From contig NZ_LT605205.1 in the NCBI RefSeq assembly GCF_900095135.1, positions 3,410,001-3,474,000 of the forward strand: a stretch of 64,000 nt of DNA, written 5' to 3'. Position numbers and translations under genes: made by a program. Of the stretch, positions 19,813 to 37,700 are shown piece after piece (positions within the stretch are counted from its first letter, which is position 1; every line of letters begins with the position of its first letter). This DNA is from Proteiniphilum saccharofermentans. GTDB taxonomy: Bacteria > Bacteroidota > Bacteroidia > Bacteroidales > Dysgonomonadaceae. The notes beneath the pieces were generated by a model. That model had not been told where the DNA came from. It ran no database searches and was given only the letters and a program-made list of their open reading frames with translations.

Positions 19813-22800
19813 TCAATATGGCCAGGCTTCGTTTTGAATCGGCGTTCGTTCCAGTTTAGCGGGATCGATTTTCACATATTTAATGCGTTGACGGCGCCAG
19901 GTGTAGACAATATGAACATATCCATCTTCTCCTTGGATAACAGAAGGATAGGAGTATTGGCTGACCGGGGAATCCTCCAGGATCAGCGAAGCATACCATG
20001 CTTTTCCGTCATCCGATAAGGCGACATTCAACGGGGTTCTGGGCCCTTTCCCTGATCTATCCGTAGGTTTTACGTGATTATATACCAGCAACTGCCGTCC
20101 GTCGCGGAGCGTCACGGCATCGGTCCCTGAATTATTATTGGGCAATCCGGACAGCGTCATTTCACCCCAGGTCTCCCCTCCCTCTTTCGACCAGGCTTCG
20201 GCCAAGGCTGCATCACGTGTCCTTGCAAGAATTTGCAAAGAGCCATCCTGATAGGTCAGGATACTGGGTTGAATTGCCCTGATCGCTTTTCCATCATTGA
20301 TGGCGCCCACTTTCCTCCAGGTTTTACCTTTGTCTTCGGTAATTTCGAAATGGACCCTCCAACCGGGAGCGCCTTCCAGACTGGAAGGACAGATCATTCT
20401 ACTGCCGATCATGACGGGTTTATTTTTGACCGGCCCGATAAACCCTTCGGGCAGCTCTTCCGGTTCCGTCCATGTTTTTCCGTGATCGAAAGAACGGATC
20501 AGATGTCCGGTCCAGTCGCTCACGGAACTACCTATCTTGTAAAAAAGCAATAATTCCTCTCCGGGCACCTGAAACAGCACCGGGTTCCAACAGGCTTTTC
20601 TCAACGTATCACTGATAATGCCGTTCGCTACCGACTCCGGTGCTGTCCATTCACCGTTCACCATCCGTGATACCCAGATTTCGACATCGGGATTCCGCTC
20701 TTTGGTCCCTCCGAAGAAAGCGGCCACCAATCCTTCAGGTGTCTCGGCGATAGTTGCTGCATGGCACTCGGGAAAGGGTGCTGTTTCATAGAGGAATTTC
20801 TCTTCCACAATACCTTTCCTCCACTTTTCGTATCCGGGATCCAGCTCCATAGTGAAGTTGTAATCGCCCGAACCCATCTCCCATATAATAGCGTTTTCGT
20901 CCCTGCCCAGTTCTTTTATCCCGTTTCCGGTTTTCAAAGCAACATCTCCTTCCCTGATATTGAAGCTGTTTGCCGGGAAATGCACCACTGCAGTACTGTT
21001 GGGCGGAACGGAAACGATCCACTCCAGCCGTTCAAGGTCTTTTTTCCAGTAGCTCTTTACATCCCCGTATGGCGTCTTATAAGAAGCATTGACATAGGAT
21101 AAGTCCTGAATATCAAAATGGGGTCTCATGATGATCTTTTTGAAAGCGATCAGCTCATCGTCCGATTTTATTCCGGCCATATTTTCGTAGCAAAACGGGA
21201 TGAAATCACCCAACAGCATCACATGGTTACCAGAATTCATTTCAGGCCGTGCCGTATCGCCATTCCATAATTCCCAGATGGTGGTAGCGCCTTGTTTTGC
21301 CATATACCCCCAGCTCGGATAAGTATCATTGGATGCCAGACGGAACGCGATATCGGCCCTTCCCATTTTGGAAAACTCCCGTAAAATCCATTGGGAACCG
21401 ATCACACCCGTAGGAATGTGGCAGTCATAGTTGTTATTCTTCATTATGCCTGTCACCAGATGGTTCTCTACGGCAGGGACCCACTCTTCGGGGATCATCC
21501 CGAAGGCGAGCGGCAACAGGTTGGCTGTCGCCGTATTGTTGCCATAAAACAGGCTGTCAGTCCGGAAGAATTTATCGTTAAATGCTGCTTTTACTTTATC
21601 GGACAATGCGTCAAATTGTGCCGCATCATCCTGTTTATCCTGTAAGAGGGCGAATTTTTTCATCAATCTGAGTATCCGGTAATAATAAGCAGTACCGATC
21701 AGCGCACCGTCGGTAAGGCGCCTCGGATCTCTTGCATGGATCTGTTCCGGTGATTCAGGTGGCACACACCAGTCACCGTACTTATCACGCGGCATAAGAT
21801 AGTCCTCTGTCATGTATTCCCCTTTCATATGGCGAACCCATTTCAGCATGCTCTCATAATTTTTTTCAATCGGTTCCTGGTTGCCGAACTGAGTATAAAG
21901 CATATCGCAATTGAAGAAGAAAGCGGAAGGCCAGGTCACATTGTCGGAATAGTAATTCCAAAAAGCAGGTGCCACATCCGGTATACATCCATCCTCCCTT
22001 TGTGCTTCGCGGATGTCGTCCATCCATTTGCTGTACATCTGGACGTTTTCAAAGAGATAACTTTCCCCAAGACCGCCGATGATCCTGTCTCCCAGCCAGG
22101 GCTGACGTTCATTCCGCTGGGGGCAATCCACCGGCATCCCTTTATAGTTGCCCCGTATCCCCCAGAAAGCATTCTTCATGACCTGATTGATCACCGGATC
22201 GGATGATTCAAAAGAGCCGGTGATCACCATCTCGTCATTCACTACCTCTCCTGTAAAATTCTTTTTGTCGACTTTGCCGGGATAACCGGTCACCTCGACA
22301 TACCGGAAGCCGTGATAGACAAACCGCGGTGCCCACTCTTCGATCCCATCTCCCTTCAGGATGTAGGTATCCGTCACTTTTGCATCACGCAGGTTGTCCA
22401 TATAGAGGTTGCCATCGGGCTGCAAAGTCTCGGCAAAACGAAGTTTCACCATATCACCTGCATTTCCCTGTACCTTAAAGCGGATCCATCCGACCATATT
22501 CTGTCCCATATCCAGAATATGCTTTCCCGGTGAGAGTTCTGTAATGGATAGAGGATCGATCGTATCGACCACTTTCATTCCTTCCATCATTTGTGCCCTC
22601 AGTGTCCCGTATGGTATGGAAACACGTTCGGCATCCTCCCAGTATGAGTCGTCGTATCCTGCCTTATTCCAGCCGGTCAACTCTTTCCGGGCATCATACT
22701 CTTCACCATCGTATTCGTTATTACTTCGGATAGGGCCATCGGCCGTCATCTTCCACGATGTATCGCTCCCTATCACCTCCCTTGTCCCGTCGGTATAATC

Positions 22801-23607
22801 GATAATAAACGTCAAACGCAACTTCGGATATCCGAAAGTGGGAATTTTATAGGGTTTGTATGCTTGCCGCATGGTATAATAACGGCCGTTACCCAGCGTT
22901 ACCCCGATCGCATTGTCTGCCACCTGAAGCATTGATGTCACATCATAACTATTGTATAACAGGGTCTGCCGGTAGTCCGTAGGAGCCGGCGCCAATACCT
23001 GATTCCCCACCCTGTTGCCATTCAGGAAGAGCTCATATAACCCTAATCCCGAGATATGGACAACAGCCTGTTTCACCGGTTTATCCACCTGGAATTCCTT
23101 ACGCAGGTAACGTGCCGAAAGGCGTGAGAACTGTGATTCAACATCCCACTTGGCACCCCTGTCCATACCGATCCAGCGTGCCCTCCAGTCATTCTCGGAA
23201 AGCAGTCCCATACACCAGAAGGCACTACCGCTCCACACCGGATTGCCTGTATTGGTTGTCACAAGCACTTTCCAGTAATAATAGGTGTTACTCTCGAGTG
23301 GTTTTCCTTCGTACCGGATCCATTGTGACTGATCGGAATTGACGACCCCCGAATCCCACATATCACCGCTGTTTTCATCCAGTTTTTGTTGGGATGAAGC
23401 GACTAAGATCCGGTACGAACGCTGCATCACATTCCGTTCACCCTCCGCAAAGATCCGCCAGCTGAACCGTGGATTTCTGGCGTCTATTCCTATAGGGTTC
23501 CGCAGCGATTCGCATTGAATATCACCTATTGATACCGCTGCAGAGACCGTATAGGTAAAAGAGGCCAGCAGGGTAACCAACACAAATATTCTTATCTTTC
23601 CCAACAT
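19813..23607 (-). CDS. GH78 alpha-L-rhamnosidase fused to a sialidase-like (BNR) domain
   Basis: A 1264-residue secreted enzyme (signal peptide ending YTVSA). Residues about 25-890 form a complete GH78 rhamnosidase: N-terminal Ig-like domain (IQCESLRNPIGIDARNPRFS), carbohydrate-binding domains, and the (alpha/alpha)6 barrel with DCPQRNERQPWLGD near residue 495, where the Glu fits the family's acid. Residues about 925-1260 are a BNR_2-type sialidase-like propeller with Asp boxes (SFDHGKTW, TEDKGKTW) and the opening FPECHAATIAETPEGLVAAF. RG-II chain C is alpha-L-rhamnose linked to Kdo, so one protein with both activities would fit, but the propeller's substrate is not shown. It is the last gene of the right operon. 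Confidence 0.88.
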   Translation of the reverse strand: MLGKIRIFVLVTLLASFTYTVSAAVSIGDIQCESLRNPIGIDARNPRFSWRIFAEGERNVMQRSYRILVASSQQKLDENSGDMWDSGVVNSDQSQWIRYEGKPLESNTYYYWKVLVTTNTGNPVWSGSAFWCMGLLSENDWRARWIGMDRGAKWDVESQFSRLSARYLRKEFQVDKPVKQAVVHISGLGLYELFLNGNRVGNQVLAPAPTDYRQTLLYNSYDVTSMLQVADNAIGVTLGNGRYYTMRQAYKPYKIPTFGYPKLRLTFIIDYTDGTREVIGSDTSWKMTADGPIRSNNEYDGEEYDARKELTGWNKAGYDDSYWEDAERVSIPYGTLRAQMMEGMKVVDTIDPLSITELSPGKHILDMGQNMVGWIRFKVQGNAGDMVKLRFAETLQPDGNLYMDNLRDAKVTDTYILKGDGIEEWAPRFVYHGFRYVEVTGYPGKVDKKNFTGEVVNDEMVITGSFESSDPVINQVMKNAFWGIRGNYKGMPVDCPQRNERQPWLGDRIIGGLGESYLFENVQMYSKWMDDIREAQREDGCIPDVAPAFWNYYSDNVTWPSAFFFNCDMLYTQFGNQEPIEKNYESMLKWVRHMKGEYMTEDYLMPRDKYGDWCVPPESPEQIHARDPRRLTDGALIGTAYYYRILRLMKKFALLQDKQDDAAQFDALSDKVKAAFNDKFFRTDSLFYGNNTATANLLPLAFGMIPEEWVPAVENHLVTGIMKNNNYDCHIPTGVIGSQWILREFSKMGRADIAFRLASNDTYPSWGYMAKQGATTIWELWNGDTARPEMNSGNHVMLLGDFIPFCYENMAGIKSDDELIAFKKIIMRPHFDIQDLSYVNASYKTPYGDVKSYWKKDLERLEWIVSVPPNSTAVVHFPANSFNIREGDVALKTGNGIKELGRDENAIIWEMGSGDYNFTMELDPGYEKWRKGIVEEKFLYETAPFPECHAATIAETPEGLVAAFFGGTKERNPDVEIWVSRMVNGEWTAPESVANGIISDTLRKACWNPVLFQVPGEELLLFYKIGSSVSDWTGHLIRSFDHGKTWTEPEELPEGFIGPVKNKPVMIGSRMICPSSLEGAPGWRVHFEITEDKGKTWRKVGAINDGKAIRAIQPSILTYQDGSLQILARTRDAALAEAWSKEGGETWGEMTLSGLPNNNSGTDAVTLRDGRQLLVYNHVKPTDRSGKGPRTPLNVALSDDGKAWYASLILEDSPVSQYSYPSVIQGEDGYVHIVYTWRRQRIKYVKIDPAKLERTPIQNEAWPY

Positions 23608-23620
23608 GATATCGTGCGAT

Positions 23621-25075
23621 TTATTTTTTCAGTTTCTCCTGTGCATCGGGCAGACTATCCCAATCACTTGAAATATACTCTTTAGAGGCATCGACAGCAA
23701 TCAATACCGTATCTTTCCCATAACGGTATCCATCGTCATCACTAAACCCGGTGACCTTATTATCGAACTCTCCGATATAGGACAACGCCCCATCTTTGGG
23801 ACTATACCACCATACTTTTTTCCTGTTGCCCGATATTTTGGTCAGGTCTATTTCCATAGGGCGTCCGGTATAATTATAGACCAACAGATAATCATTACCT
23901 CGTGTGGCTATCAACCGGTCGTAACGGATACCGTTGGTACCTGCGATCACTGTCTGGTCGGGCACCCTTTCAAAATAGGGGAAAGTCAGCATTAAGTTTT
24001 TCAGGTATTTCATCTGGTTGATTCCAGGGTCGTTCAATGCTTCATACCATGTCTTCTGGGCTCCGTAAGCACCACCGATTCCATCTTTCTTCATCTGCAT
24101 GATGGAATTATGACCATAGGTATGTCCGAACGATCCGGCGAAAACAGACCAGTAAGCATAACGACGCACATCGTCGTCGTTCCATTTCACTTCATTGGGA
24201 TTATGCAATCCATGCGGAATATCTTCATAGATGGGCTCTCCGTCGATCACCGGTTTTAGCGGTTCCAAAGCAAAGCTGCGTTCAACAAACCGCCAGTTGT
24301 CTTCTTCGGTATTCTCTTCGATAGGATATTCGCCGTCACCTTTGCGCTGGCCGTAACGCCGGTGCCCCGACTGGAACATATTGAAATCCAGCCAGTGTTC
24401 GTTATGGAACCAGGTACCCGACATAGTCCTGCCACGAGGATGATACGTCATCAAATGATGTTTATCAATAGCCCGGATACTGTTCGCCAGTGCATCCCAG
24501 ACCTCTGTTTTTACGTCTCCCCGGATATCTCCACCGATAAGCCAAATAATATTAGGACTATCCTTATACCTTTTTGCTAAAAATTCCCCATATTTTCTGG
24601 CATCTGCCGTGCTCATTTTTCCTTGCTGCACCGGAGTACCCCACACACAGACCATTCCGATATAGATCCCTTTCCGTGCCGCAGTCTCTATAATATAATC
24701 CATATGGTCCCAGTAGCCGTATTCACCTTTTTTATCGATATTCTCAAAATTAAATCCTTCCGGCAGCGCCCATTTCCCGTATGCATTGATCGCGGGCATG
24801 GTATTCATGACCATTACCTGTACCACATTGTATCCTTTCTGTTTGCACTGCTCCAGATAATACTCGGCTTCATCCCTGTTCAACCGTGCCGGTAGATACC
24901 AGCCGGTCTCACCCAACCAAAAAAAGGGAGTACCGTTTTCATGTTTCAAATAGCGGTTTCCTTCGTCCACCACCAACTTCCCGTTTTTCCACGGGATATA
25001 GGTTTCCTGAGCCGACAGGTTATTCGTTAGACATACAACAATAATAATGGTTATCAGGGATTTGAATTTGTTCAT
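23621..25075 (-). CDS. GH140-family apiosidase-type hydrolase (DUF4038)
   Basis: A 484-residue protein with a signal peptide (SLITIIIVVCLTNNLSA). The TIM barrel starts with the DUF4038 signature HENGTPFFWLGETGWYLPAR. The catalytic acids of the family are expected at NIIWLIGGDIRGD (Asp near residue 182) and PVIDGEPIYEDIPHG (Glu near residue 277), and both are present. A C-terminal DUF5060/DUF4038-type beta domain follows (YTGRPMEIDLTKISGN). Studied GH140 enzymes split apiose from galacturonan in RG-II chains A and B. It lies 13 bp upstream of the GH78 fusion in the same operon and strongly supports RG-II as the target. Confidence 0.9.
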   Translation of the reverse strand: MNKFKSLITIIIVVCLTNNLSAQETYIPWKNGKLVVDEGNRYLKHENGTPFFWLGETGWYLPARLNRDEAEYYLEQCKQKGYNVVQVMVMNTMPAINAYGKWALPEGFNFENIDKKGEYGYWDHMDYIIETAARKGIYIGMVCVWGTPVQQGKMSTADARKYGEFLAKRYKDSPNIIWLIGGDIRGDVKTEVWDALANSIRAIDKHHLMTYHPRGRTMSGTWFHNEHWLDFNMFQSGHRRYGQRKGDGEYPIEENTEEDNWRFVERSFALEPLKPVIDGEPIYEDIPHGLHNPNEVKWNDDDVRRYAYWSVFAGSFGHTYGHNSIMQMKKDGIGGAYGAQKTWYEALNDPGINQMKYLKNLMLTFPYFERVPDQTVIAGTNGIRYDRLIATRGNDYLLVYNYTGRPMEIDLTKISGNRKKVWWYSPKDGALSYIGEFDNKVTGFSDDDGYRYGKDTVLIAVDASKEYISSDWDSLPDAQEKLKK

Positions 25076-25153: not shown

Positions 25154-26356
25154 TTATTTATTTGATTTTTGTAATTTCTCCATTTCGATAGCGGCCAAAA
25201 TAAAGGAGCCGGTTGATTTAGGGTCGTTTTCTATGACCGGTTCACTGATGTAATATTCAAAGGATCCGTCCCTGCGCCTTCCATCTCCCCCTAATCCGGC
25301 GACAGCGCAACAGTGAGTGATGGTGTACGTTCCGTCTTCTTCCAGCCTGATAAAATTGCGGATGATCCCGTCAAATCCTTTTTCTGCGGTATCCCTGTAG
25401 CTTTGGTCAATATAGTTGTTGTTCAGCGCTTTGGACAGGAAATAGACAAAAAGGGCCGAACCGGATGATTCCAGATAATTCCCTTCCCTGTTTCCCTGGT
25501 CCGTCACCTGATACCACACACCCGTAGCGGGATCCTGGTATTTCTTCATTCCTGATGCAAGGGTATTCACTATAACAAGCAGGCTATCGCACCCCTGATG
25601 GTCTTCGGGAAGGAAATCGAGGACATCTACCAACGCTGCGGCATACCATCCCATACTGCGAGACCAGAACCCGGGGGACGTACCTGTCTCCTTATCCGCC
25701 CAAAATTGTTCTCGTGATTCATCCCATCCGTGATAAAAAAGCCCTGCTTCTTCGTCATAGGTATGCCGGGCAATCATAGTGATCTGGTTGACCACATCAT
25801 CATAGAGCGCCGGTTCGTTGAAAACAGCCGCATACTGCACCAAAAAAGGAGAAGCCATATAGATACCGTCGAGCCACATCTGGTGCGGATACTTCAGTTT
25901 ATGCCAGTAGCCGCCTTCCGAGGTACGGGGATGCGTTTGCATCTGGGTATACAGGGTGTCTATCGCTTGTTTATAGCGGGGATCATTGGTTTGTGCATAC
26001 AGGTCAAAGAGTATCTTTCCGGGACTGACATTATCGATATTATACGATTGCATCGAATATGTTTTGATTTGTCCCCCATCCGTAATCAGACTGTCGGCAT
26101 AGAGTTTGGCATAATCAAAATATTTTTGGTCTCCGGATACTTCCCACAATTCGAGCATCGATTTGGCGACCAGTCCGAAAGTGTAAGTCCACCTTGGTTT
26201 TGTCGCTTTTTCAATCATCCATAATTCCGGAAAACGAACCATTTCCGAATCGGCCATTTTTTCCGACCAGGGCTTCTCTTCGTTTTGTTGTTCGCATGAC
26301 ACGAATAGCAGGGACAGAGCAATAAGAATCAATAAATTACACTTAAGAAACTTCAT
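25154..26356 (-). CDS. GH105 unsaturated rhamnogalacturonyl hydrolase-type lipoprotein
   Basis: A 400-residue protein with a lipoprotein signal (LIALSLLFVSCEQQ). The (alpha/alpha)6 barrel has the GH105 motifs RWTYTFGLVAKSM near residue 55 and HQMWLDGIYMASPFL near residue 158, where the Asp is the family's acid/base. HCCAVAGLGGDGRRRDGSFE near the C-terminus is also characteristic. It removes the 4,5-unsaturated uronic acid that polysaccharide lyases leave on the non-reducing end, so it acts downstream of the two PL1 lyases. It is separated from GH95 by a low-complexity spacer of about 220 bp. Confidence 0.93.
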   Translation of the reverse strand: MKFLKCNLLILIALSLLFVSCEQQNEEKPWSEKMADSEMVRFPELWMIEKATKPRWTYTFGLVAKSMLELWEVSGDQKYFDYAKLYADSLITDGGQIKTYSMQSYNIDNVSPGKILFDLYAQTNDPRYKQAIDTLYTQMQTHPRTSEGGYWHKLKYPHQMWLDGIYMASPFLVQYAAVFNEPALYDDVVNQITMIARHTYDEEAGLFYHGWDESREQFWADKETGTSPGFWSRSMGWYAAALVDVLDFLPEDHQGCDSLLVIVNTLASGMKKYQDPATGVWYQVTDQGNREGNYLESSGSALFVYFLSKALNNNYIDQSYRDTAEKGFDGIIRNFIRLEEDGTYTITHCCAVAGLGGDGRRRDGSFEYYISEPVIENDPKSTGSFILAAIEMEKLQKSNK

Positions 26357-26369
26357 ATATCTCTTTTTT

Positions 26370-26580
26370 TAATTACAAATTACTAATTACCAACTACTAA
26401 TTACCAATTACTAATTACCAATTACCAATTACTAATTATTAATTACCAATGAGTTGGCATAATACAATTATAGGTACTTGTTCCCAAATTTTTCATTCTT
26501 CACTCTTAGTTTTTAGTTTTTAATTTTTCACTTTCAGTTCTTAGTTTTCCACTCTTCATTTTTAATTTTTCATTCTTCAT
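26370..26580. repeat. Low-complexity AT-rich spacer with two tandem repeat types
   Basis: 26370-26450 is an irregular tandem of ATTACTAATTACCA-like units. 26490-26580 is a second irregular tandem based on TTCATTCTTCACTCTTAGTTTTTAG-like units running up to the GH95 stop codon. No gene or promoter box is seen. Such spacers may arise by slippage and may separate transcription units. Confidence 0.7.
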
Positions 26581-29039
26581 TTTTTATACACCAAATAAGT
26601 CTCCCCTGCCTTGGTATTCAGGTCGTAGATAAAGCTATCTGCGATACCGGTGGGGGGAATCTCTGTTTCCGAATGAATAAGCGGTGCGGGAATATCGGGC
26701 GTCTCAAAACAGGCATTCGGATTAATCCCTTTCGCCCTTTTTAATCCTTTTCCTTTCAGGGCTGTCCGGGAACGCAGCCGACAATTGCCACCGTTCTTTG
26801 ATATTATCTTAACCTCACTCACCTCTCCTTCTCTCCATATAATATCTATCTCAAATCCGCCACGGGCGAGTAACCCTTTGACATGTCCCTCTTTCCACAA
26901 CGACGGTAAAGCCGGAAGAAGATAGATAAACCCATCGTAGCTCTGCATCAACATTTCCGCGATACCGGCCGTACAACCAAAATTCCCGTCGATCTGGAAG
27001 GGCGGGTGTGCATCGAAGAGATTGGGATAGGTACCGCCCGGCCCGGAATTTTCCCTGACAAGTGTCAGTTGGTCGGTAATCAATTGATAGGCCTGTTCTC
27101 CATCGAGCAAACGTGCCCACAGGCACACTTTCCATCCCATCGACCAACCGGTGGAAGGCCCTTTCCTGTGAATCAGCGATATCCGTGCAGCGTTGAATAA
27201 TTCCGGAGTACGATAAGGGGATATCTGATTACCAGGGAATAACCCGTATAAATGAGAGACATGCCTGTGCGTATCTTTCGGGTCGTCCCAATCATGCATC
27301 CACTCCTGAAGCTGTCCCCATCGTCCGATCTGCATCGGCGCCAACTCCGGCAACCGTTGTCTTAAATGAGCGGCATAATCATGATCCATATCCAAAACAG
27401 ACGAAGAAGTGATCACACTATTCCATAAGTCGAATACCAACTGGTTGTCCATGGTACAACCTGCCGCGATGGAAGCTCTTCCCCCGCTGCCGGCATGTGT
27501 ATTTTCCGGAGAGTTGGAAGGAACGACCACCAACCAGTTATTTTCGGGTTCATGCACCATGAATTGATCGAAGAAAAGAGCTGCCTCTTTCAGGATCGGA
27601 TATACTTCACGTAAGAAATCCACATCACCGGTATAGAGATAATGCTCCCATAAGTGTCTGCACAGCCAGGCGCCGCCGGCAGGCCACATTCCCGACATAG
27701 CCCGGTCTACCGGCCCGGTAATGCGCCAGATATCGGTGTTGTGATGAAGGACCCATCCGTCTGTGGCATACATGATTTTAGCTGTCTCCTTTCCCGTTTC
27801 CGAGACCTCTTTGATGAGCCTGAACAACGGTTCATTCAATTCCTGTAAGTTGGTGACTTCCGTAGGCCAATAGTTCATCTCAAGATTAATATTGGTCGTA
27901 TATTTACTATCCCACGAAGGGAAAAGCGCATCGTTCCATATTCCCTGAAGGTTGGCCGGCTGTCCGCCCGGCTGTGAACTCGACAGGAGCAGGTAACGGC
28001 CGAACAGGAAATAGGTGGCTACAAGATGCGCATCGTGGGTCTCTTTAAAATTCCGGATACGCTCGTCGGTAGGAACGTCGGCGTATATATCTTCGCCCAA
28101 ATAGAGGCTTACACGGTCCAGATAACTCCGGTAATATGCCGTATGGGCTTCTTTCGACTCCTGATAATTCCTAATCTTTGCTTTTTCCAGATAATCCGCC
28201 GTACGTTGTACTTCATCGGCCGTGATATCCTGATAGTTGTTGAAATTGGTAGCTATGGAAACATACAGTACCACTTCATCGGCATCTACCACAGAGATCA
28301 CCCCATCCCTGTAAAGCACATTGCCGCCAGTTGCATCCACCGATGCCCGGCCGTGGAACCTCACTCTCCCGGACACTCTTTCGTGAGTAGACGTAACGCC
28401 TGATAACGAAACAAAATCCTCACCGGTAGCTATTTTTACGTCTCTGTGCGGTGAGGTAAGGTGCGCGTTAAACGTGATCGCACCGGGCCTGTCGGCTGTC
28501 AGCCGGATCAACACTACCTGATCGGTGAAAGAGGTAATAAATTCCCTTTTAAAAGTCACATCGCCCACTTTGTAGGACATCGAAGCTTTGGCCGAATCCA
28601 GATCCAGTTCCCTATAATAATCGGAATAGCTGGCGTGTCCCGGAAATGACATCCTCAGGTCTCCGAAAGGCTGGTAGGGCATTCCCGAATTGGTGTTGGA
28701 CATCACCTTTTTGTTGGCCAAATCCTGTGCTTCTACATATTTACCGGCAAATATCAGTTCACGTATTTTCGGAATATTCTCCAGCGCATCCGGATTCGCA
28801 TTGCTATTGGGACGCCCCGCCCAGATCGTCTCCTCATTCAACTGGATCTGGTCGATCGCCGGATTGGCATATACCATTGCCCCCAATCGTCCGTTACCGA
28901 GCGGCAATGCCTCAGTCCAGACCGCAGCCGGTTTGTCGTACCATAGCTTATATCCCTGACCGTACATGCTTAATGAAAAAGTCATGAAAAACAGACCGAG
29001 AAAATAACCTGTAAGAAACCGTTTTTTCATCTTATTCAT
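26577..29039 (-). CDS. GH95 alpha-L-fucosidase / alpha-L-galactosidase
   Basis: An 820-residue protein with a signal peptide (YFLGLFFMTFSLSMYGQ). The N-terminal beta-sandwich starts KLWYDKPAAVWTEALPLGNG, the family hallmark. The (alpha/alpha)6 catalytic region has TTNINLEMNYWPTE near residue 383 (the Asn pair that activates water), GCTMDNQLVFDLW (region of the general acid) and IDGNFGCTAGIAEM near residue 684 (Asp). In RG-II, GH95 enzymes act on chain A L-galactose or on fucosides elsewhere in pectin or xyloglucan; the sequence alone does not let me choose. It lies between GH28 and GH105 in the right operon. Confidence 0.92.
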   Translation of the reverse strand: MNKMKKRFLTGYFLGLFFMTFSLSMYGQGYKLWYDKPAAVWTEALPLGNGRLGAMVYANPAIDQIQLNEETIWAGRPNSNANPDALENIPKIRELIFAGKYVEAQDLANKKVMSNTNSGMPYQPFGDLRMSFPGHASYSDYYRELDLDSAKASMSYKVGDVTFKREFITSFTDQVVLIRLTADRPGAITFNAHLTSPHRDVKIATGEDFVSLSGVTSTHERVSGRVRFHGRASVDATGGNVLYRDGVISVVDADEVVLYVSIATNFNNYQDITADEVQRTADYLEKAKIRNYQESKEAHTAYYRSYLDRVSLYLGEDIYADVPTDERIRNFKETHDAHLVATYFLFGRYLLLSSSQPGGQPANLQGIWNDALFPSWDSKYTTNINLEMNYWPTEVTNLQELNEPLFRLIKEVSETGKETAKIMYATDGWVLHHNTDIWRITGPVDRAMSGMWPAGGAWLCRHLWEHYLYTGDVDFLREVYPILKEAALFFDQFMVHEPENNWLVVVPSNSPENTHAGSGGRASIAAGCTMDNQLVFDLWNSVITSSSVLDMDHDYAAHLRQRLPELAPMQIGRWGQLQEWMHDWDDPKDTHRHVSHLYGLFPGNQISPYRTPELFNAARISLIHRKGPSTGWSMGWKVCLWARLLDGEQAYQLITDQLTLVRENSGPGGTYPNLFDAHPPFQIDGNFGCTAGIAEMLMQSYDGFIYLLPALPSLWKEGHVKGLLARGGFEIDIIWREGEVSEVKIISKNGGNCRLRSRTALKGKGLKRAKGINPNACFETPDIPAPLIHSETEIPPTGIADSFIYDLNTKAGETYLVYKK

Positions 29040-29105: not shown

Positions 29106-31988
29106 TTATCGAAAATATTTCTGCAATTGCTCAAAAGAGCGAATGGCATTTTCAGGATACAGCTCACCATCCTTGTCGAAACTCTTCAACGCCTCCTGCG
29201 GTTCCACAGTAATCCGGCCTTCGTCCAACTTCGTTCTATCCAGGGAGAAACGGGAAACAAAAAAATCATATACAGCTTTTCGTTTATTGAACCCAAAATC
29301 ATGCCCTTCCTCCTCCAGATGCACATTTCCCACATTCCCCACAGCATCATCGTACAATGCATACATATTTTTCAGATAGGGATACTCCAATGAAGGCACA
29401 CTCGCAGTCCAGTCTCCCCCATCGGACACAATCAGCAGGGGCCGGGGAGCAAACATAGCAGCCAACTCGGCATTATTTGTACCTCCACACGCTAAGAAAA
29501 CCGGCAATCCGCTCTCGCAGGGACAACCCCCATCAAAATGGGAAGCCAGACTTACTACCGGCGCCATTGCCGTATAGCGATCGTCAAGCACCGACAGCAG
29601 GACAGCCTGAGATCCGCCACCGGAACCGCCATTCACCCCTACTCTTTCTCTGTCGATATCATTTCGAGTGAGCATATAATCAAGAATCGCGATTCCGTTC
29701 ATCGCCTGGATCACATGCGCCGCACTGGAACGATGTGCCTCACTTCCCACCTGAAGGGCCGACTCACCCCATCCAAAGAGGTCATATCCGACACAGACAG
29801 CCCCCATTCTGGCTAAAGATCCCATCCTCACCTGTTGGTCTTTCCGGTAACGGCCATCGGCAAAATGGCCATTGGGACAAATGATCAATGCATGTTTCCC
29901 TTTGGATAAAGGGGTATAAATTGTACCGGCAACATAAAGACCAGGGAGTGTTTCCAATGCAAAATTCTGCACCGTATAACCATCATATTTCCTGATTTTC
30001 GATAAAATAGGTTTTGCATGAACCCTTTGCACAAGCAGATCATCTATTCCAAGTTTCTCCCTCACCTCTGTATAGAGGCATTTTTTTCGTTCTTCCCATG
30101 CTTTCCTGTCCGGATACAACGATGCCAGATAGTCAAGCATCTTCTTACCGTCTTCCGGCGTCCTGCGGTGATATTCGTAGGATTTCAACTTATAATGACG
30201 ATCACTTTGCTTTACAAACTTATAATCAAAGGGGGCAAGTATATTCTCCAGGGTTTCCTCAATTGAATAGGAACGAATCCTGAAATCGGCATACGGAAGC
30301 ACTTTTCCTATCGTATCGATATCGTAGGAAAGACGCACATTGAACCGTTCGGATATTTCCGCCAGGACCTCACTCAACGGCCTTTCAAACCTGTTTTCAA
30401 ACCGCTGTTGAGTCTGGTAAACCGGATTATTTTTATCTCCACTTCCTTTATCCAGGACTTCACCTACTCTTTTTAAATAATTATTCATCAACACAACACC
30501 TTCGTTTTTACCATCCAATCGCAGAAACGACCTGTTTCCGGCCATCGGAAAACACCCCTGGATAATGAGATCTTTTGAGTCCTGCACTGTGATCAAAGGT
30601 TTTTCGTTATCGGGTGTTCCTGTCCATACATTATTCATCATCACATTTTCCGAGTGAGCAATCCTGAACGGCGAGGAAGTATCAATTCGGATATCCCTCA
30701 AAGTGACATTTTTGGCGTTTTCGATAGTAGCTCCCTGTTTCGATTGGATATTGATATTGCTGAACGAAATATCGGAAACCGGCATCTCTTCCAGCCCGAC
30801 GACCTCAATCGCTTTATTCACTTCCGTACCGGTCAGGTTGGATATATGGATATTCCTGAAAACAGGCGTTCTTTCCGAAACCGGTTCCGGGTCCATTTTG
30901 CTATACATCAGGTTCATGATGATGGCTTCTTTCTGAATATTCTTCATCACAATATTGCTGACCCTTATCTCCTCCACGATACCTCCCCGCCCCCGGGTAG
31001 ATTTCAGGCGGATCCCCCTGTCGGTTCCGTCAAACACACAGTTGGATATTACCACTTTTCTTACATCGCCGCTCACCTCGCTTCCGATCACCACTCCACC
31101 ATGTCCCGACAGCATCGTGCAATTGGTGATGGTAATATTTTCACAGGGAATCGCAAGGTTACGCGCCTGTTCATCGCGTCCCGATTTTATTGTGATGCAA
31201 TCATCCCCGACGCTGATATGACAATCGGAGATATGCACATTTCTACAGGAAGAAGGATTGATACCGTCCGTGTTGGGTGAAGGGGGATTGTTGATCGTTA
31301 TCCCGGTAACGGTTATATTTTCACAAAACTCCGGGTTGATCGTCCAGAAGGGGGAATTCACGATTGTGATCCCCTCGATACGGATATTCTCACAACGGAT
31401 AGTCTGGAAAAGCGGCGGACGGAAAAACCGTCTGTTCAGGGTATTGACATAATCTGAATTGGTCAGCCTGTAGAGCTCTTCCGTATTGTTTTCTTTATCC
31501 CAGAGCGGCTGGTACTTATTCAGGTCCTTGATCCCGTTTTTCTGAAGATCGACGATCACCCGGTAGAATTCATCCCACCACTTTTTTCCCTGGCCGTCGA
31601 TGGTGCCTCTCCCCTTAATCGTGATATTCTCCTCTTCTACGGCATACAACAGCGGGGAAAAACTTTTCATCATTACTCCCTCGTACCGCATATCGACAAA
31701 AGGCAGGTAATCATCGAAATTATCCGAGAAAAGCAGGATAGCGCCTGACTCCAGCTCTATCGTGATGTGGCTCTTTAATTTGATGGCGCCTGTGAGATAC
31801 TTCCCCGCGGGAAAATAGAGCGTTCCTCCGCCTTTGGCCGATAAATCAGCTATCGTATTATTTATCAATTGAGTGTTTAACTTTTCACCGCTATCGTCCG
31901 CACCCAGTAATTTCATATTCACATTGTCGGCATAGGAAAGTGATGAAAAAAGGAAGAGAAACAGTATAGATAATTGAAAGTACTTCAT
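29106..31988 (-). CDS. GH28 polygalacturonase fused to STN-like domain and alpha/beta-hydrolase esterase
   Basis: A multidomain protein of about 960 residues. I take the Met at 31988 as start because it leads directly into the signal peptide (MKYFQLSILFLFLFSSLSYA); an upstream Met at 32009 exists. Residues about 30-500 are a GH28 beta-helix with NTDGINPSS (near 241), SVGDDCITIKSG, SGHGGVVIGSE (near 294) and RGIRLKS. Residues about 528-600 resemble an STN/DUF4974 domain (RPLSEVLAEISERFNVRLSY). Residues about 620-930 are a serine alpha/beta-hydrolase (VNGGSGGGSQ nucleophile elbow near 789, EEGHDFGF His). It probably de-esterifies and cuts homogalacturonan; in known RG-II loci the GH28 and pectin esterase are separate neighbours. 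Start, frame and stops show one continuous frame. Confidence 0.87.
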   Translation of the reverse strand: MKYFQLSILFLFLFSSLSYADNVNMKLLGADDSGEKLNTQLINNTIADLSAKGGGTLYFPAGKYLTGAIKLKSHITIELESGAILLFSDNFDDYLPFVDMRYEGVMMKSFSPLLYAVEEENITIKGRGTIDGQGKKWWDEFYRVIVDLQKNGIKDLNKYQPLWDKENNTEELYRLTNSDYVNTLNRRFFRPPLFQTIRCENIRIEGITIVNSPFWTINPEFCENITVTGITINNPPSPNTDGINPSSCRNVHISDCHISVGDDCITIKSGRDEQARNLAIPCENITITNCTMLSGHGGVVIGSEVSGDVRKVVISNCVFDGTDRGIRLKSTRGRGGIVEEIRVSNIVMKNIQKEAIIMNLMYSKMDPEPVSERTPVFRNIHISNLTGTEVNKAIEVVGLEEMPVSDISFSNINIQSKQGATIENAKNVTLRDIRIDTSSPFRIAHSENVMMNNVWTGTPDNEKPLITVQDSKDLIIQGCFPMAGNRSFLRLDGKNEGVVLMNNYLKRVGEVLDKGSGDKNNPVYQTQQRFENRFERPLSEVLAEISERFNVRLSYDIDTIGKVLPYADFRIRSYSIEETLENILAPFDYKFVKQSDRHYKLKSYEYHRRTPEDGKKMLDYLASLYPDRKAWEERKKCLYTEVREKLGIDDLLVQRVHAKPILSKIRKYDGYTVQNFALETLPGLYVAGTIYTPLSKGKHALIICPNGHFADGRYRKDQQVRMGSLARMGAVCVGYDLFGWGESALQVGSEAHRSSAAHVIQAMNGIAILDYMLTRNDIDRERVGVNGGSGGGSQAVLLSVLDDRYTAMAPVVSLASHFDGGCPCESGLPVFLACGGTNNAELAAMFAPRPLLIVSDGGDWTASVPSLEYPYLKNMYALYDDAVGNVGNVHLEEEGHDFGFNKRKAVYDFFVSRFSLDRTKLDEGRITVEPQEALKSFDKDGELYPENAIRSFEQLQKYFR

Positions 31989-32087
31989 ATGATTACAATT
32001 TAGACACAAGACACAAGAACCAGGACATAAGACAATTTTCCGATTTATTGATTTAGCGATTTGCAGATGAAACCATAAAGATTAGGA
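31989..32087. other. Short simple-sequence spacer
   Basis: Contains GACACAAGACACAAG and GATTTATTGATTTAGCGATTTG type short repeats, similar in kind to the spacer upstream of susC3. No gene. Confidence 0.4.
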
Positions 32088-34793
32088 TTACAGTTTTACA
32101 GAATAACTATATTTTCCGCTTCCCGCATCATGCGATTGTTTGTCAGGAAGGATTATTCTGGCCCGGGTATTCACAGGCACCTCTACGTTCAATTGGAATG
32201 TGTTGTTTTCTATTTTCCAGTCGACGCTGATCTTTCCATAGAGCGTTTCAGTAGATGCCGAAACAGATGTCAGGTCACCTACCACCTGCGGATGCACGAT
32301 GAACCGTTCATATCCGGGAAAATCGGTATCGGGTTGGATCCCTGCAAGCCAGGCAAAGAACCATTCATCGATCTGTCCCATCATAAAATGATTCCATGAA
32401 GTACCCTGTCGTGGATCCCATTGCTCGGTAAGGGTGGTAGCTCCGAACTTCACCTGAAATCCGTAACCCGGTACGTCTTCGTGATTATTCATGATGTACA
32501 TCAACTCATTCAGATCATTCTGTGCCAATGTCTGGAACAGGTAACGGTTCCCCACATCACCGGTTGTTAACCGGTTTCCCTGTTTCCGGATATCTTTTAC
32601 CAGGTTTGCCAGCACCCGGTCTCTGTTTTGCCTGTCTACCATATCAAAGAAAAGGGGTATCGCATTCGATGCCTGGCTTCCGGTTCCGTACTGGCCTGTT
32701 TTTTCATCGAAGAACATCCTGTTGAAGCCCTCTTTGACGGATGCCGACAATTCATGATAGTATGTCGCATCCGCATTTTTCCCTACCATTACCGCCGCCT
32801 TGCTGAGCAGGGTAAGATCCCAGTAATAGTGAGCCGTCGCCACCAACGGGACGGGCGTATTTTTCGAAAATCCGGCTTTTTCGCCATGATAATCGTACCA
32901 ATCACCCAGGCCATGCGATACAATATGTCCGGAAGCGGTGGAAGAGAGATAATCCACATAGTTCTTCATTACATCGTAGTAATTATCAATCAAAGAATCA
33001 TCGCCATAATAGAGATAATACATCCAGGGCAATATGACCGACGCACTTCCCCATTCGGGCGAATCCCTGAAACCTCCGTCAAACACCACAAATTCGGGTG
33101 CAATACTGGGAACCAGCCCCGTAGGTAGCTGGGCATCCCTGATATCCTGCATCACCTTGGGGATGAATGTTCTCAGGTTGTAATTATAGTAGAGGCCCGG
33201 TCCGTTCAAATGAACCTGCTCCAGCCAACCTAATTTCTCCCTGTGGGGACAATCGGTAAACACAGCCTGCATGTTACTTCTTACGGCATTGCCGATTATC
33301 CTGTGTGCATTATTGAAGATGCTGTTTGAACTTTCAAATGTAGATATTTTTTCTGCCGAATTATAGATAAAGCAGGAGTTAATCTCTTTGAGTCTCGGTA
33401 AACCGGCAGAGGTTTGTTGTTCTTTAGACGCCAGATCAGCCTGGATATACCTGAATCCGTAATAGGAGAAACGGGGACGCCAATATTCATCTCCCTCTCC
33501 CCGCAGTACATATTCATAGTAATGCTTACTTCCGGTTTGTTTCTGGCTTACTGTTCCGTCCTCATTCAACGATTCTCCGACAGTCAGCCGGATGGTATCG
33601 CCCTTTTGTCCGTTCACCACTATTTCCGGGAAACCGGACAGGTTCTGTCCCATATCCATCACATAACGATGGTCGGAAATTTTATTGGTCTCCTTCACGC
33701 CAAAACGCTCCATGATCTTTACAGGAGTGGCCTGCTGTGCCCTCAACTTTCCTCTCGGCGCGTCCTGGACAATAACAGGGTTCCATTCTTCATCATTGAA
33801 TGCAGCCGTATTCCATCCCGGCTGTTCCCTCGTGGCATCATAATCCTCCCCTCCGTAAATACAGTTGAAGGTGATGGGGCTATAGTCGTATTTCCAGTTT
33901 TCGTCCGACTGCACCTCCCGGGTTGTTCCATCGGAATAAGTGATGATCATCTTGAAAAAAAGCGTCGGTGGTCCGAAGCTCACCAATAGTTTCCGGTATC
34001 TTCCCCCTTGCACATTATAAAATCCGTTCCCCAATAATATACCGATCGCATTTGCTCCCTCTTTCAAATATCCGGTTACATCGTAGGCGTTGTAATACAC
34101 TGTTTTATCATAATCGCTTACAAGAGGTGCTAATTCGCTTTCACCTATCTTTTCTCCGTTCAATGAAAATTCATACAACCCCAGTCCGCAGACATACGCC
34201 ATAGCCTCTTCGACTGTTTTGCCGGATTCAAAAGTCTGCCGCAGGTATATGCTCTTATTGGATAAGGGATTGACCTGCTCCCAAAGGGATCTGTTCTCCG
34301 GCCTCCCCATGACTGTTGAGTGAAAATTCCTCCCTTTCGGAAGTCTGGCATCCTGATGAGAGACAGACCCGATCCATTCGGCGTTCAGGAACGCTGAAGC
34401 CGGCGCCATGCGAAAAGAATTTTTCTCACTCCATTCCGACGGCTGGTTTTTCTCATTCCATACTTTTACCCGCCAGAGATATTTTTTCATCGGTTCCAGT
34501 ACCCTGTTACCGTCATAAGCGACATAGCGGCTGTTTGATGAGATCGTTTTTCCGGTACTCCAGAATAGCTTCTCGTTACCATCGACCAGTTCATATACTT
34601 CAATCTCATAAGCGCTCTGATAAGTACCATTCTCTTCGGAAGTGATCTGCCAACCGAACCGGGGGTGGGTTGAACTGACCGTGACGGGTGATTCCATCCT
34701 GTCGCATGTAAGACGAACCACTTCAAAAGCCCCGGCTTGTCTTACACTCAAACAGAGAATCCAGATACACAGCAATGATATTTTACCCTTCAT
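32088..34793 (-). CDS. GH78 alpha-L-rhamnosidase
   Basis: A protein of about 901 residues. I choose the Met at 34793, one nucleotide after the stop of the upstream gene, because it starts the signal peptide MKGKISLLCIWILCLSVRQ; a Met at 34805 overlaps the upstream gene. The GH78 plan is complete: Ig-like domain (SSTHPRFGWQITSEENGTYQ), carbohydrate-binding domains (GLGYEFSLNGE-like GLGLYEFSLNGEKIGES), the barrel with TDCPHREKLGWLEQVHLNG carrying the acid Glu, GATTLTEQWDP and a C-terminal beta domain. It removes alpha-L-rhamnose and differs from the two other GH78 proteins in the window in its acid-motif subtype, so the three probably act on different rhamnosyl linkages. Confidence 0.93.
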   Translation of the reverse strand: MKGKISLLCIWILCLSVRQAGAFEVVRLTCDRMESPVTVSSTHPRFGWQITSEENGTYQSAYEIEVYELVDGNEKLFWSTGKTISSNSRYVAYDGNRVLEPMKKYLWRVKVWNEKNQPSEWSEKNSFRMAPASAFLNAEWIGSVSHQDARLPKGRNFHSTVMGRPENRSLWEQVNPLSNKSIYLRQTFESGKTVEEAMAYVCGLGLYEFSLNGEKIGESELAPLVSDYDKTVYYNAYDVTGYLKEGANAIGILLGNGFYNVQGGRYRKLLVSFGPPTLFFKMIITYSDGTTREVQSDENWKYDYSPITFNCIYGGEDYDATREQPGWNTAAFNDEEWNPVIVQDAPRGKLRAQQATPVKIMERFGVKETNKISDHRYVMDMGQNLSGFPEIVVNGQKGDTIRLTVGESLNEDGTVSQKQTGSKHYYEYVLRGEGDEYWRPRFSYYGFRYIQADLASKEQQTSAGLPRLKEINSCFIYNSAEKISTFESSNSIFNNAHRIIGNAVRSNMQAVFTDCPHREKLGWLEQVHLNGPGLYYNYNLRTFIPKVMQDIRDAQLPTGLVPSIAPEFVVFDGGFRDSPEWGSASVILPWMYYLYYGDDSLIDNYYDVMKNYVDYLSSTASGHIVSHGLGDWYDYHGEKAGFSKNTPVPLVATAHYYWDLTLLSKAAVMVGKNADATYYHELSASVKEGFNRMFFDEKTGQYGTGSQASNAIPLFFDMVDRQNRDRVLANLVKDIRKQGNRLTTGDVGNRYLFQTLAQNDLNELMYIMNNHEDVPGYGFQVKFGATTLTEQWDPRQGTSWNHFMMGQIDEWFFAWLAGIQPDTDFPGYERFIVHPQVVGDLTSVSASTETLYGKISVDWKIENNTFQLNVEVPVNTRARIILPDKQSHDAGSGKYSYSVKL

Positions 34794-34794
34794 A

Positions 34795-37700
34795 CTACAA
34801 AACATCCTGACAAACTATTTTTTCCAATTGATCCGATCTTCCCGCTTCTTTTCCATCCACAAAAATCCTGAAACCTTTTCCCTGATGATAGCGGTCTCCG
34901 TTTTTATCCCATAGGATCGTAATACTCCTACCGTGGTATGGCAGATTATCCAGACAGAACCAATCCCATTTATCTGCCGGCAACAGGGGATTTACAACAA
35001 GGGTATTGTCTTCCTGGGGACGAAGCCCGATCAATCCGGTAATCAACAGATCATTAAAGGTGGAATGATTGTAATATTTGCTCCTCTCCTGATCCCCTTT
35101 CAACCAATAGCCTGTCACTTCATCCTGATATTCACCTATGTAGGGTCGTCCCCTGTGATATTGTGATTCCACGTACAGTTCCATCAAACGATAATAGATA
35201 CTGTCGTTCACGGTGGTCTGGGAATAGTTATTCATGAAATTGGCCATCGCCGTCATGGTCTGGCTGGTCGCAAACGGCCAGATTGCTCCGTCCCATTCAC
35301 AATTACAGCATCCTGCTTTACGGAAAAGCGGGTGACGCCGTTCGGCTGTTGTCAACCCGTATGGGGCCAGGAAACCCTCTTCATCTGTAAGTTGTTCCCA
35401 GGCTACATCATATTTCCCCTCATCCGGCAAATTAAAATACCAGGGGATATAGCCGATCGCTTCCCTTACATTGGCCAGAGAATCCCCTCTGTGTGTTTCA
35501 AAAAACTGATGCTCTTCGTTCCAGAGTACCTGATCCACCAGATTTTTTATCGTATCCCTTTTCAATTGGTATTCCCGGGATTTTTCTTTCTCACCGGCCA
35601 ACAGAGTGATCTTCGAGAGAGCATCCGCATTTCCGTACATATAGCTATTGATGGTGGGGCGGGCATATTTTTTGCGTCTTCCGCCACTGATCGACTCCTC
35701 CATCCCATCCTGTACATCTCCCTGCCAGTAGAGGTTATTCGGTAACCGGTGAGTTGTCTCCCACCTGCGGTATTCATTTTCCAGATCGGGTAACAGGTCA
35801 AGCAGGAATACGCTATCCTTGTCTACCAGATAACGGTTATAGAGGGCGTCTGCCGCCCACGAACTGAAATTACCGAATCTCTCCATCGGCTTTCCTTCAT
35901 TTCCTCTATACCAGGCGTGGATATACTGGTCAAGATATTGCGGATCGCGAAGCCATCGCGACTCATAGATGTGATGACCAAAAGCACAGGCAATCATATT
36001 GTATTTATCGGCATACGACCTGTTTACCAGAAACTCGGTCATGACGTACCCTATGGGAGTCTCTTTGATATGTTTTCTCAAGGACCACCAGCGATAGTAG
36101 TACATCTCTTCAAAATTCTCCTGAGGACATTCAAACAGCGGTATATTTTTTCTCATCCATTCACTCGATTCACTGTTTGGAATAGCCTGAACAATATTCT
36201 CCTCTTCCATCCGGTTGAAGTAGTCCGCATAGTGCCTGAAATGATCGTAACGAAGGATCATGCCTTCCTGATAACCACTTATATCGGACGTACGAAGGTT
36301 CCTGATATAAAACGCAGACAACGGATCTTGCTCTCCCGCATCGGGCAGGTCGTCATAGTTATCCGCCGGGGTCTCAGGTGTCGGATGCTGGCGTAATTCG
36401 CCAGTCCTGAACACGATTCTTTCGATGGAATGAACCGGTGCAAAAAATCTCCTGACACCTACCCTCTTTTCATTCACATAGACCACTATTTCATTATTGG
36501 ATGCCGATAAATCTGCCCTCACCGTATATTCCCTGTCAGACTCATATTGCATCATGTTGGAGAAACGGGCTCCCCCTTTTACCCTGAAAACGCCTTCCGG
36601 TGTCAGTTCAAGGCGGGAACAGGCAATACCGTTCTCATCCATGAATTCAATCTGCAAAGTGCCGTTGGCCACTTGTGCGGCCATCACTTTGAACGAAACG
36701 CTTAATTCCCCGGTTTTAGGAATTTTCCTTTCGATCTTCGCATAATCAAACGGATCTTTATCTTCCAGCGCAAGCCAGGTATGCCCCTCTTTTTTCTGCA
36801 GTGAAACCGGTGCCCATAGCGGAGAATAGATATTCCACTCTGTCAGATCGGATAACTTTTCTTTGGTATCCAGGTCATCGTTCGCATGGGCGGTAGCATC
36901 CGTTTTTACAGGTACAGGCACTCTGGCCACCCACATATCCTCTTTGTTCATGCTGTAGGTTACCCAAAGATCCCCATCGGGCGGGACACCGTTGCCTTCC
37001 TGTATCCCCCGGACATATTGCGGCCCGTAGGACTTATAGTTTCCACCATATCTCATCGGGGTGATCTCACCATGTACAAGGTTCAGCGTAGTGTATTCTA
37101 TCCCGTCAGTACTGGTAGAAATAGCCAGGGGCCACCTGAATTCCGCCGGATTATATACAGTGGCATAGGTGCCGTCACTCAACCGCTGCCCCCATATTTT
37201 GGCGTTACTGTTGATAAAACCTCTCGCCCTTTCGACGGGTTCCAGCCAGGTTTTTCCGCCGTCTTTACTAATGGAAGTCAATGCATGTTTCCATAAACCT
37301 ACCACGTTGCCGTCAGGCAGATGATAATAGGAAAAAGCCTTATATTGTTTCTTTAACGGAATCAACGGGTCATCCCTGTCCGACTCTTCGACCCATTGCA
37401 TCATATAGAGCGGATTTTCCAGGATTTCCCTGCACGCTTTCACAAATTCTTTGTCCTTGCTTCTCTCGAAATAGGGGTAGTCCGTATTTTTTTCGTTAAA
37501 CTGATGATTATAGCGGATAAAATAGATGGGACCGAAAGAACCGTCTTTTTTAATTTCACGGACCACTCTGCCGATCCCGTTCCCATCGTTGGGATCATCT
37601 TTTTCATCTAACGCGATACCATAGTATCCCATGGCGATAAGACGGTCCGACTTGGATACATAGAACCCGACCCTTTGATGCATGATCGCTTCCAACCCTT

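What the first reader, a model, noticed from the sequence alone, without database searches (positions are those of the whole stretch)
19813..23607. Rhamnosidase fused to sialidase-like propeller: a possible one-protein chain C enzyme
RG-II chain C is alpha-L-Rha linked to Kdo. A GH78 followed by a sialidase-fold domain (the fold used for 2-keto-3-deoxy sugars by GH33) could remove both sugars in turn. The propeller has Asp boxes, but I cannot confirm the Arg triad of true sialidases, so it may be a new specificity.
Basis: partly seen in the sequence, partly recalled or inferred. Interest (0 to 1): 0.75.

Follow-up and report, generated by a model that had tools for sequence, protein, structure and literature searches.

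The report
Two-enzyme protein for plant pectin RG-II
A bacterium carries one secreted protein that joins a rhamnose-removing enzyme to a sialidase-shaped domain, most likely to strip a two-sugar branch (rhamnose then Kdo) from the plant pectin RG-II; the idea is probably already known, but the second active site differs clearly from that of ordinary sialidases.

Summary
ORF 19813-23607 (minus strand, 1264 aa) is a complete GH78 alpha-L-rhamnosidase followed by a sialidase-fold (BNR_2) domain. It lies in an RG-II utilisation locus of a Proteiniphilum-like genome. The fusion is conserved: at least 12 of 393 genomes of the order have it, 11 of them among the 20 with an RG-II marker. The Arg-triad question is answered: two Arg and the Tyr are kept, but the catalytic Glu is an invariant Gln, no Asp stands at the acid/base place, and the first Arg is replaced, most simply by an invariant His (41 sequences). 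So it is not a canonical sialidase. Best reading: GH78 removes Rha, then the propeller removes Kdo, from chain C. Substrate and activity are inferred. Support from aldolase/transporter neighbours exists but is limited to 5 of 36 loci examined. 'Kdo hydrolase' is already listed as a GH33 activity in print, and I recall BT1013 as the same architecture, so I call this a new member of a known kind. Open: the altered active site, and a ketose-epimerase-like barrel fused behind the propeller in four genomes.

The parts
19813..23607 (-). whole gene: GH78 rhamnosidase fused to sialidase-fold propeller, 1264 aa
23539..23607 (-). Sec-type signal peptide, about residues 1-23 (judged by eye, no predictor run)
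   Evidence: sequence; inference
23197..23523 (-). Ig_Rha78A_N domain, residues 29-137
22567..23082 (-). Bac_rhamnosid_N, residues 176-347
22240..22539 (-). Bac_rhamnosid concanavalin-like domain, residues 357-456
21178..22221 (-). GH78 six-hairpin catalytic domain, residues 463-810
   Evidence: solved relatives 6i60, 3w5m
22108..22110 (-). E500, aligned with 3w5m E636 (general acid, recalled)
   Evidence: alignment; invariant in 15 fused sequences
21271..21273 (-). E779, aligned with 3w5m E895 (general base, recalled)
   Evidence: alignment; invariant in 15 fused sequences
20965..21147 (-). Bac_rhamnosid_C, residues 821-881
19816..20832 (-). sialidase-fold propeller, residues 926-1264 (BNR_2 at 960-1233)
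20761..20763 (-). H949, invariant; in the place of the first triad Arg of GH33 if no gap is allowed
   Evidence: one search's hhalign puts a three-residue gap here instead
20698..20700 (-). E970, invariant; candidate replacement for the lost acid/base Asp
   Evidence: role is inference
20269..20271 (-). Q1113, invariant, in the place of the Glu that activates the Tyr nucleophile
20221..20223 (-). R1129, second triad Arg, invariant
20038..20040 (-). R1190, third triad Arg, invariant
19948..19950 (-). Y1220, invariant, Tyr nucleophile position
   Evidence: hhalign prefers Y1218, which is Tyr in only 31 of 41 rows
23621..25075 (-). GH140 apiosidase-like, directly upstream, same strand
25154..26356 (-). 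GH88/105-type unsaturated uronyl hydrolase
26577..29039 (-). GH95
29106..32009 (-). GH28 with a second half that is a separate gene in four relatives
32088..34805 (-). second GH78
34795..38121 (-). BT_1020-like (GH143/GH142) protein; RG-II marker PF24067
43412..49238 (-). SusD/SusC-type pair of the locus
49406..50341 (-). AP_endonuc_2 / ketose-3-epimerase-like barrel, lipoprotein-like N-terminus (by eye); fused to the propeller in relatives

Best explanation
A secreted two-step exo-enzyme for RG-II side chain C. The GH78 part removes the terminal alpha-L-rhamnose of Rha-alpha-1,5-Kdo (an inverting Glu/Glu reaction, as recalled for GH78); this exposes Kdo, which the C-terminal sialidase-fold domain then hydrolyses off the galacturonan backbone, using Arg1129, Arg1190 and His949 to hold the carboxylate and Tyr1220 at C2, with Glu970 the likeliest new acid. 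Shown: domains, fold, residue conservation, RG-II context, conserved fusion. Inferred: substrate, order of steps, residue roles.
For: Complete GH78 with both catalytic Glu. Sialidase fold. RG-II locus: GH140, GH141, GH127, GH95, GH28, GH105-type, BT_1020-like, a pectate-lyase-like protein and three SusC/SusD pairs. Of 393 genomes of the order, the propeller family (E <= 1e-20) is in 19 of 20 with the RG-II marker and 27 of 373 without; the fused form in 11 of 20 versus 1 of 373, and that one has GH140 next door (L059). Where not fused, GH78 and propeller genes are adjacent in L048 and L074. Chain C is Rha-alpha-1,5-Kdo, alpha-2,3 to the backbone (PMC12282258, passage). A DHDPS/NAL-type aldolase and an SSF symporter lie near the propeller in L052, L053, L055, L057 and, inside an RG-II locus, L073. 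Eight positions set RG-II rows apart from others; six of them lie at 1187-1238, around R1190 and Y1220 in sequence. Dha, the other keto sugar, already has a BT_1020-like protein in the locus (its Dha activity is recalled). 'Kdo hydrolase' is a listed GH33 activity (PMC9120202, PMC11214529, passages).
Against: No activity data. The GH33 Glu and acid/base Asp, and the first Arg, are all replaced, so the propeller cannot work exactly like a sialidase; and the wider family, not only the RG-II clade, has this changed site. The aldolase link is thin: only 5 of 36 loci (4 of 20 outside RG-II loci, all four in one clade) by similarity, and no control in genomes without the RG-II marker. No aldolase or SSF gene was found among the window ORFs scanned; the genome's closest aldolase homologue is at 34 kb, far from the locus. 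Three of the 20 marker genomes (G022, G068, G176) have no propeller of the RG-II clade that I saw, and three rows of that clade (L013, L049, L068) had no RG-II neighbour in the stretch fetched.
Confidence: 0.67

Rival explanations
1. The propeller is a non-catalytic carbohydrate-binding domain that anchors the rhamnosidase on RG-II.
For: Three of six canonical GH33 catalytic positions are replaced.
Against: Twelve polar residues (H949, E970, K1024, K1061, E1078, Q1113, R1129, D1163, R1190, Y1220, H1232, R1239) are invariant across 41 sequences as low as 35% identical to the window's (that they line one pocket was not shown), and the domain occurs as a stand-alone protein of roughly 345-420 aa in many genomes.
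Confidence: 0.13
2. The propeller hydrolyses another keto sugar of RG-II, namely Dha of chain D.
For: Dha is the other 2-keto-3-deoxy acid of RG-II (PMC12282258, passage).
Against: A BT_1020-like GH143/142 protein, recalled as the Dha hydrolase, is in the same locus; the propeller family is found in 19 of 20 genomes with that marker. The fusion is to a rhamnosidase, and rhamnose caps Kdo, not Dha (PMC12282258, passage).
Confidence: 0.08
3. The propeller is an ordinary sialidase for nonulosonic acids, joined to GH78 by chance.
For: 47 of 50 listed Foldseek matches are sialidases or neuraminidases; BNR_2 family.
Against: Incomplete Arg triad, no acid/base Asp, Gln for Glu. The genome has two separate sialidases with the canonical RIP, YD, TTE, MRDN and YSC motifs (L003, L004). 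The fusion follows RG-II loci.
Confidence: 0.04
4. The propeller is a GH145-like rhamnosidase or a propeller lyase (PL24/25/42-like).
For: Some propeller enzymes of plant- or alga-glycan loci have these activities (recalled).
Against: None of the 50 Foldseek matches listed is described as a rhamnosidase or lyase (541 further hits with E below 0.001 were not listed); two Arg and the Tyr of sialidases are kept.
Confidence: 0.04

Closest known systems
BT1013 of the B. thetaiotaomicron RG-II loci (recalled as GH78-GH33; Ndeh et al. 2017, not held, nothing seen)
   Same: As recalled: same two domains, next to the GH140 BT1012. PMC4032388 (passage) says that BT_1012 is colocalised with an alpha-rhamnosidase.
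GH33 Kdo hydrolase (activity listed in PMC9120202 and PMC11214529, passages)
   Same: Sialidase fold; predicted keto-deoxy acid substrate of RG-II.
   Different: I could not see which sequence carries that activity, nor whether it has the same altered active site.
Canonical GH33 exosialidases (Micromonospora 1w8o/1eur; L003 and L004 of the same genome)
   Same: Sialidase-fold propeller, Arg2, Arg3, Tyr.
   Different: First Arg replaced (His in the ungapped reading), acid/base Asp is Phe or Gly, Glu is Gln; 19% identity at best in the Foldseek list.
GH78 rhamnosidases (3w5m SaRha78A, 6i60)
   Same: Full domain series and both catalytic Glu.
   Different: Extra C-terminal propeller.

Membership tests
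GH78 alpha-L-rhamnosidase | Bac_rhamnosid domain series with six-hairpin catalytic domain | tested here: met
   all over gathering cut-off
GH78 alpha-L-rhamnosidase | catalytic Glu pair (E636/E895 of 3w5m, roles recalled) | tested here: met
   E500 and E779; invariant in 15 of 15
GH78 alpha-L-rhamnosidase | rhamnose release from Rha-Kdo | not testable with these tools
   needs an assay
GH33 sialidase | sialidase-fold beta-propeller | tested here: met
GH33 sialidase | full Arg triad | tested here: not met
   R1129 and R1190 kept; no Arg at the first place, H949 there in the ungapped reading
GH33 sialidase | acid/base Asp | tested here: not met
   F965 (41 of 41 Phe) or G966 (35 Gly, 3 Ala, 2 Leu, 1 Glu of 41) at that place
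GH33 sialidase | Tyr nucleophile | tested here: met
   Y1220, 41 of 41 rows; one search aligns it, searches align Y1218 instead
GH33 sialidase | Glu that activates the Tyr | tested here: not met
   Q1113, 41 of 41 rows
GH33 sialidase | assignment by CAZy's own GH33 model | not testable with these tools
   no CAZy model library; NCBIfam gives nothing for the domain
RG-II utilisation locus | SusCD with GH140, GH141, GH143/142, GH127, GH95, GH28, GH78, pectate lyase | tested here: met
RG-II utilisation locus | GH106, GH137, GH138, GH139, GH2 members | not tested
   not searched for in the genome; no such Pfam name came up for the window ORFs scanned
GH145 propeller rhamnosidase | close fold match to GH145 | tested here: inconclusive
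   none among the 50 listed Foldseek matches

The most novel reading that the evidence does not exclude
The propeller belongs to a separate, widespread branch of the sialidase fold with its own chemistry: a His-Arg-Arg carboxylate clamp, Gln instead of Glu at the Tyr, and a relocated acid (Glu970), suited to the axial leaving group of alpha-Kdo (stereochemistry recalled), so that it deserves a family of its own; and in some relatives the fused ketose-epimerase-like barrel acts on the freed Kdo, giving a three-step chain C enzyme in one chain.
Probability: 0.25. Interest if true: 0.65.

Novelty: new member of a known kind. Interest (0 to 1): 0.4.

Why it matters
[quoted passage not shown] The fusion, the side-by-side unfused pairs and the residues specific to RG-II rows give a clear, testable assignment for the Rha-Kdo branch. 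The altered active site asks how a sialidase fold would cut a keto sugar whose anomeric geometry is opposite to that of sialic acid (recalled); the closest solved structures listed share 19% identity at most. Relatives outside RG-II loci, some beside keto-acid aldolases, suggest further unknown substrates.

Tried and rejected
Canonical sialidase: rejected on residues. GH145 or lyase: no such match listed. Chance fusion or assembly error: rejected by conservation. Structure overlay of catalytic residues: not possible, the models came without coordinates and the VIA library was absent, so residue mapping rests on sequence-profile alignments; its N-terminal part is weak (hhalign places a three-residue gap beside the RIP motif; I prefer the ungapped reading). 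Naming a B. thetaiotaomicron orthologue: not possible, the single genome-contig scan found six loci of close relatives, and the search for BT1013 listed four papers on spruce and macadamia. The search for GH78-GH33 wording found one paper, whose passage is on binding modules. RG-II with Kdo, GH33, rhamnosidase or sialidase: (listings; passages read). None of the passages describes this fusion; the supplements were not open to me.

Rows dropped: L009 (near-identical) and two distant propellers (L052:7267, L055:12218) were left out of alignment A1; L013, L049 and L068 were left out of the clade-specific residue count. Of the 46 genomes with the propeller, 35 had a region fetched (for G000 the paralogue's); 11 were not (G006, G011, G020, G039, G107, G230, G260, G262, G311, G331, G339), so 12 fused genomes is a lower bound. 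P-values treat related genomes as independent and are overstated.
Full report
What is there. The ORF at 19813-23607, minus strand, encodes 1264 aa. By eye it starts with a Sec signal. Residues 29-881 carry the whole GH78 domain series; residues 960-1233 match BNR_2 with 284 bits. The GH78 part aligns with solved rhamnosidases 6i60 and 3w5m; E500 and E779 fall on 3w5m E636 and E895, which I recall as its acid and base, and both are invariant in 15 fused sequences.

Where it is. The window is G000:C1:3410001-3474000 of a 4.41 Mb single-contig genome; Proteiniphilum sp. X52 has a near-identical protein and neighbourhood (L009; 100% over the GH78 part, 99.7% over the propeller). Upstream in the direction of transcription and on the same strand lie GH140, GH88/105-type, GH95, GH28, a second GH78 and a BT_1020-like GH143/142 protein, then GH43-like, DUF3826, a pectate-lyase-like and SusD/SusC genes; downstream lie two more SusC/SusD pairs, GH127, GH141 and part of a rhamnosidase-like gene. 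That is an RG-II locus.

Is the fusion meaningful? I examined 41 loci. Leaving out L009, 15 have GH78 and propeller in one frame; 14 of these 15 have at least one RG-II-type neighbour and the fifteenth (L066) is a 6.2 kb contig. Five more loci (L045, L048, L050, L073, L074) have the propeller not fused to GH78 within RG-II loci; in L048 and L074 the GH78 gene is directly beside it. Across 393 genomes of the order, 46 have the propeller at E <= 1e-20 and 20 have the RG-II marker PF24067. The propeller is in 19 of the 20 and in 27 of the other 373; the fused form in 11 of 20 and 1 of 373, the one being G388 (L059), which has GH140 next door. In a tree of 41 propellers, 24 rows (16 fused, 5 unfused in RG-II loci, 3 others: L013, L049, L068) form one side of a branch with support 100/98. 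By that tree 16 of the 20 marker genomes have a propeller of the RG-II clade; G006 was not placed, G068 (L054) and G176 (L063) have one outside the clade and G022 has none.

The propeller. AlphaFold2 gives mean pLDDT 94. Of 50 Foldseek matches listed, 47 are named sialidases or neuraminidases, TM (query) 0.68-0.77, identity 11-19%. A profile of the 41 sequences finds 58 distinct PDB sequences at E <= 0.001, nearly all sialidases, NanC and NanB first. Alignments to these and to two canonical sialidases of the same genome agree that Q1113 stands where the catalytic Glu stands and R1129 where the second Arg stands; R1190 matches the third Arg. The Tyr is Y1220 and by the ungapped 15-residue distance to the next conserved strand; prefer Y1218, which is Tyr in only 31 of 41 rows, so I take Y1220. 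In the first blade the RIP Arg has no Arg partner: H949 lies there if no gap is allowed, and the acid/base Asp falls on F965 or G966. H949, F965, E970, Q1113, R1129, R1190 and Y1220 are each identical in 41 of 41 rows; G966 is Gly in 35, and Glu in one (L075). So three of six canonical GH33 positions are changed in a fixed way, which does not look like decay. E970 (41 of 41) and D974 (39 Asp, 2 Glu) are conserved acids close after the lost Asp; their role is inference.

Specificity. Comparing 21 RG-II rows with 17 others (3 rows dropped), eight positions are set apart: P1015, D1121, K1187, T1191, P1192, S1213, Q1217 and R1238. Six of the eight lie at 1187-1238, the stretch that holds R1190 and Y1220, as expected if they read the RG-II sugar; their places in space were not seen.

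Metabolic context. By similarity to L052 genes, a DHDPS/NAL-type aldolase lies near the propeller in 5 of 36 loci: L052, L053, L055, L057 (4 of 20 loci outside RG-II contexts, one clade at 93/96) and L073, an RG-II locus; an SSF symporter is in 9 of 36 (L045, L050, L052, L053, L055, L056, L057, L069, L073). Pfam confirms the aldolase in the four (and not in L056, the fifth tested) and in L073, which also has SSF and a rhamnose-mutarotase domain. L069 fuses SSF to the propeller. A close homologue (54% or more) of the L073 aldolase is in 12 of the 20 RG-II genomes; in 7 of these 12 it lies within about 25 kb of the propeller, the barrel gene or the BT_1020-like gene (places). In the window's genome it is not near the locus. 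No control set without the marker was run for it, and the aldolase could serve Dha as well as Kdo. This line of support is therefore modest.

A third partner. Window ORF 49406-50341 is an AP_endonuc_2 barrel whose homologues (E <= 1e-30) are in 13 of 393 genomes, all 13 among the 20 RG-II-marker genomes. It is fused behind the propeller in L045 and L050, and in L046 and L047 the order is GH78-propeller-barrel. Its model (pLDDT 89.5) is closest to ketose 3-epimerases, and a 3-keto-glucoside lyase is among the hits. Its function is open.

Known or new? Chain C is Rha-alpha-1,5-Kdo (PMC12282258, passage). PMC9120202 and PMC11214529 (passages) list Kdo hydrolase under GH33, the second within RG-II breakdown; PMC4769552 (passage) describes a pectin-induced B. 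xylanisolvens locus with GH28, GH33, GH43, GH78 and PL1; PMC6852159 (passage) suggests Kdo or Dha for plant GH33. I recall BT1013 as GH78-GH33 from Ndeh 2017, which is not held. I therefore file the finding as a new member of a known kind; what is not explained in anything that I read is the altered active site.

Noticed in passing
window 49406-50341; L045, L046, L047, L050: Lipoprotein-like ketose-3-epimerase-type barrel; 13 of 393 genomes of the order have it, all 13 with the RG-II marker, and it is fused to the propeller in four genomes; function unknown.
   Followed up: partly
L052, L053, L055, L057, L073: Propeller relatives near DHDPS/NAL-type aldolase and SSF symporter genes, once (L073) inside an RG-II locus.
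   Followed up: partly
L045 1-4612, L050 1-4281: RG-II loci with SSF-like, Fe-alcohol dehydrogenase, PdxA-like and acid-sugar-kinase-like (SBD_N/NBD_C) genes upstream, perhaps for rare RG-II acids or apiose.
   Followed up: no
window 18170-19721: Schlafen AlbA_2 / HATPase_c_4 / HTH regulator split into two overlapping ORFs; the near-identical L009 has one 521-aa ORF there.
   Followed up: partly
L069 1037-3616: Fusion of an SSF symporter with the propeller domain in one 859-aa frame.
   Followed up: no
L055 11957-14440: A distant BNR_2 propeller fused to an alkaline-ceramidase-like domain, near the main propeller gene.
   Followed up: no
window 29106-32009: 967-aa GH28 protein whose second half is a separate neighbouring gene in L008, L010, L011 and L012; that half has no Pfam match at E <= 0.001.
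   Followed up: no
L067 (same genome, C1:49500-69490): Stand-alone propeller paralogue beside alkaline phosphatase, AP_endonuc_2, GFO/IDH/MocA and MFS genes: same family, another substrate likely.
   Followed up: partly
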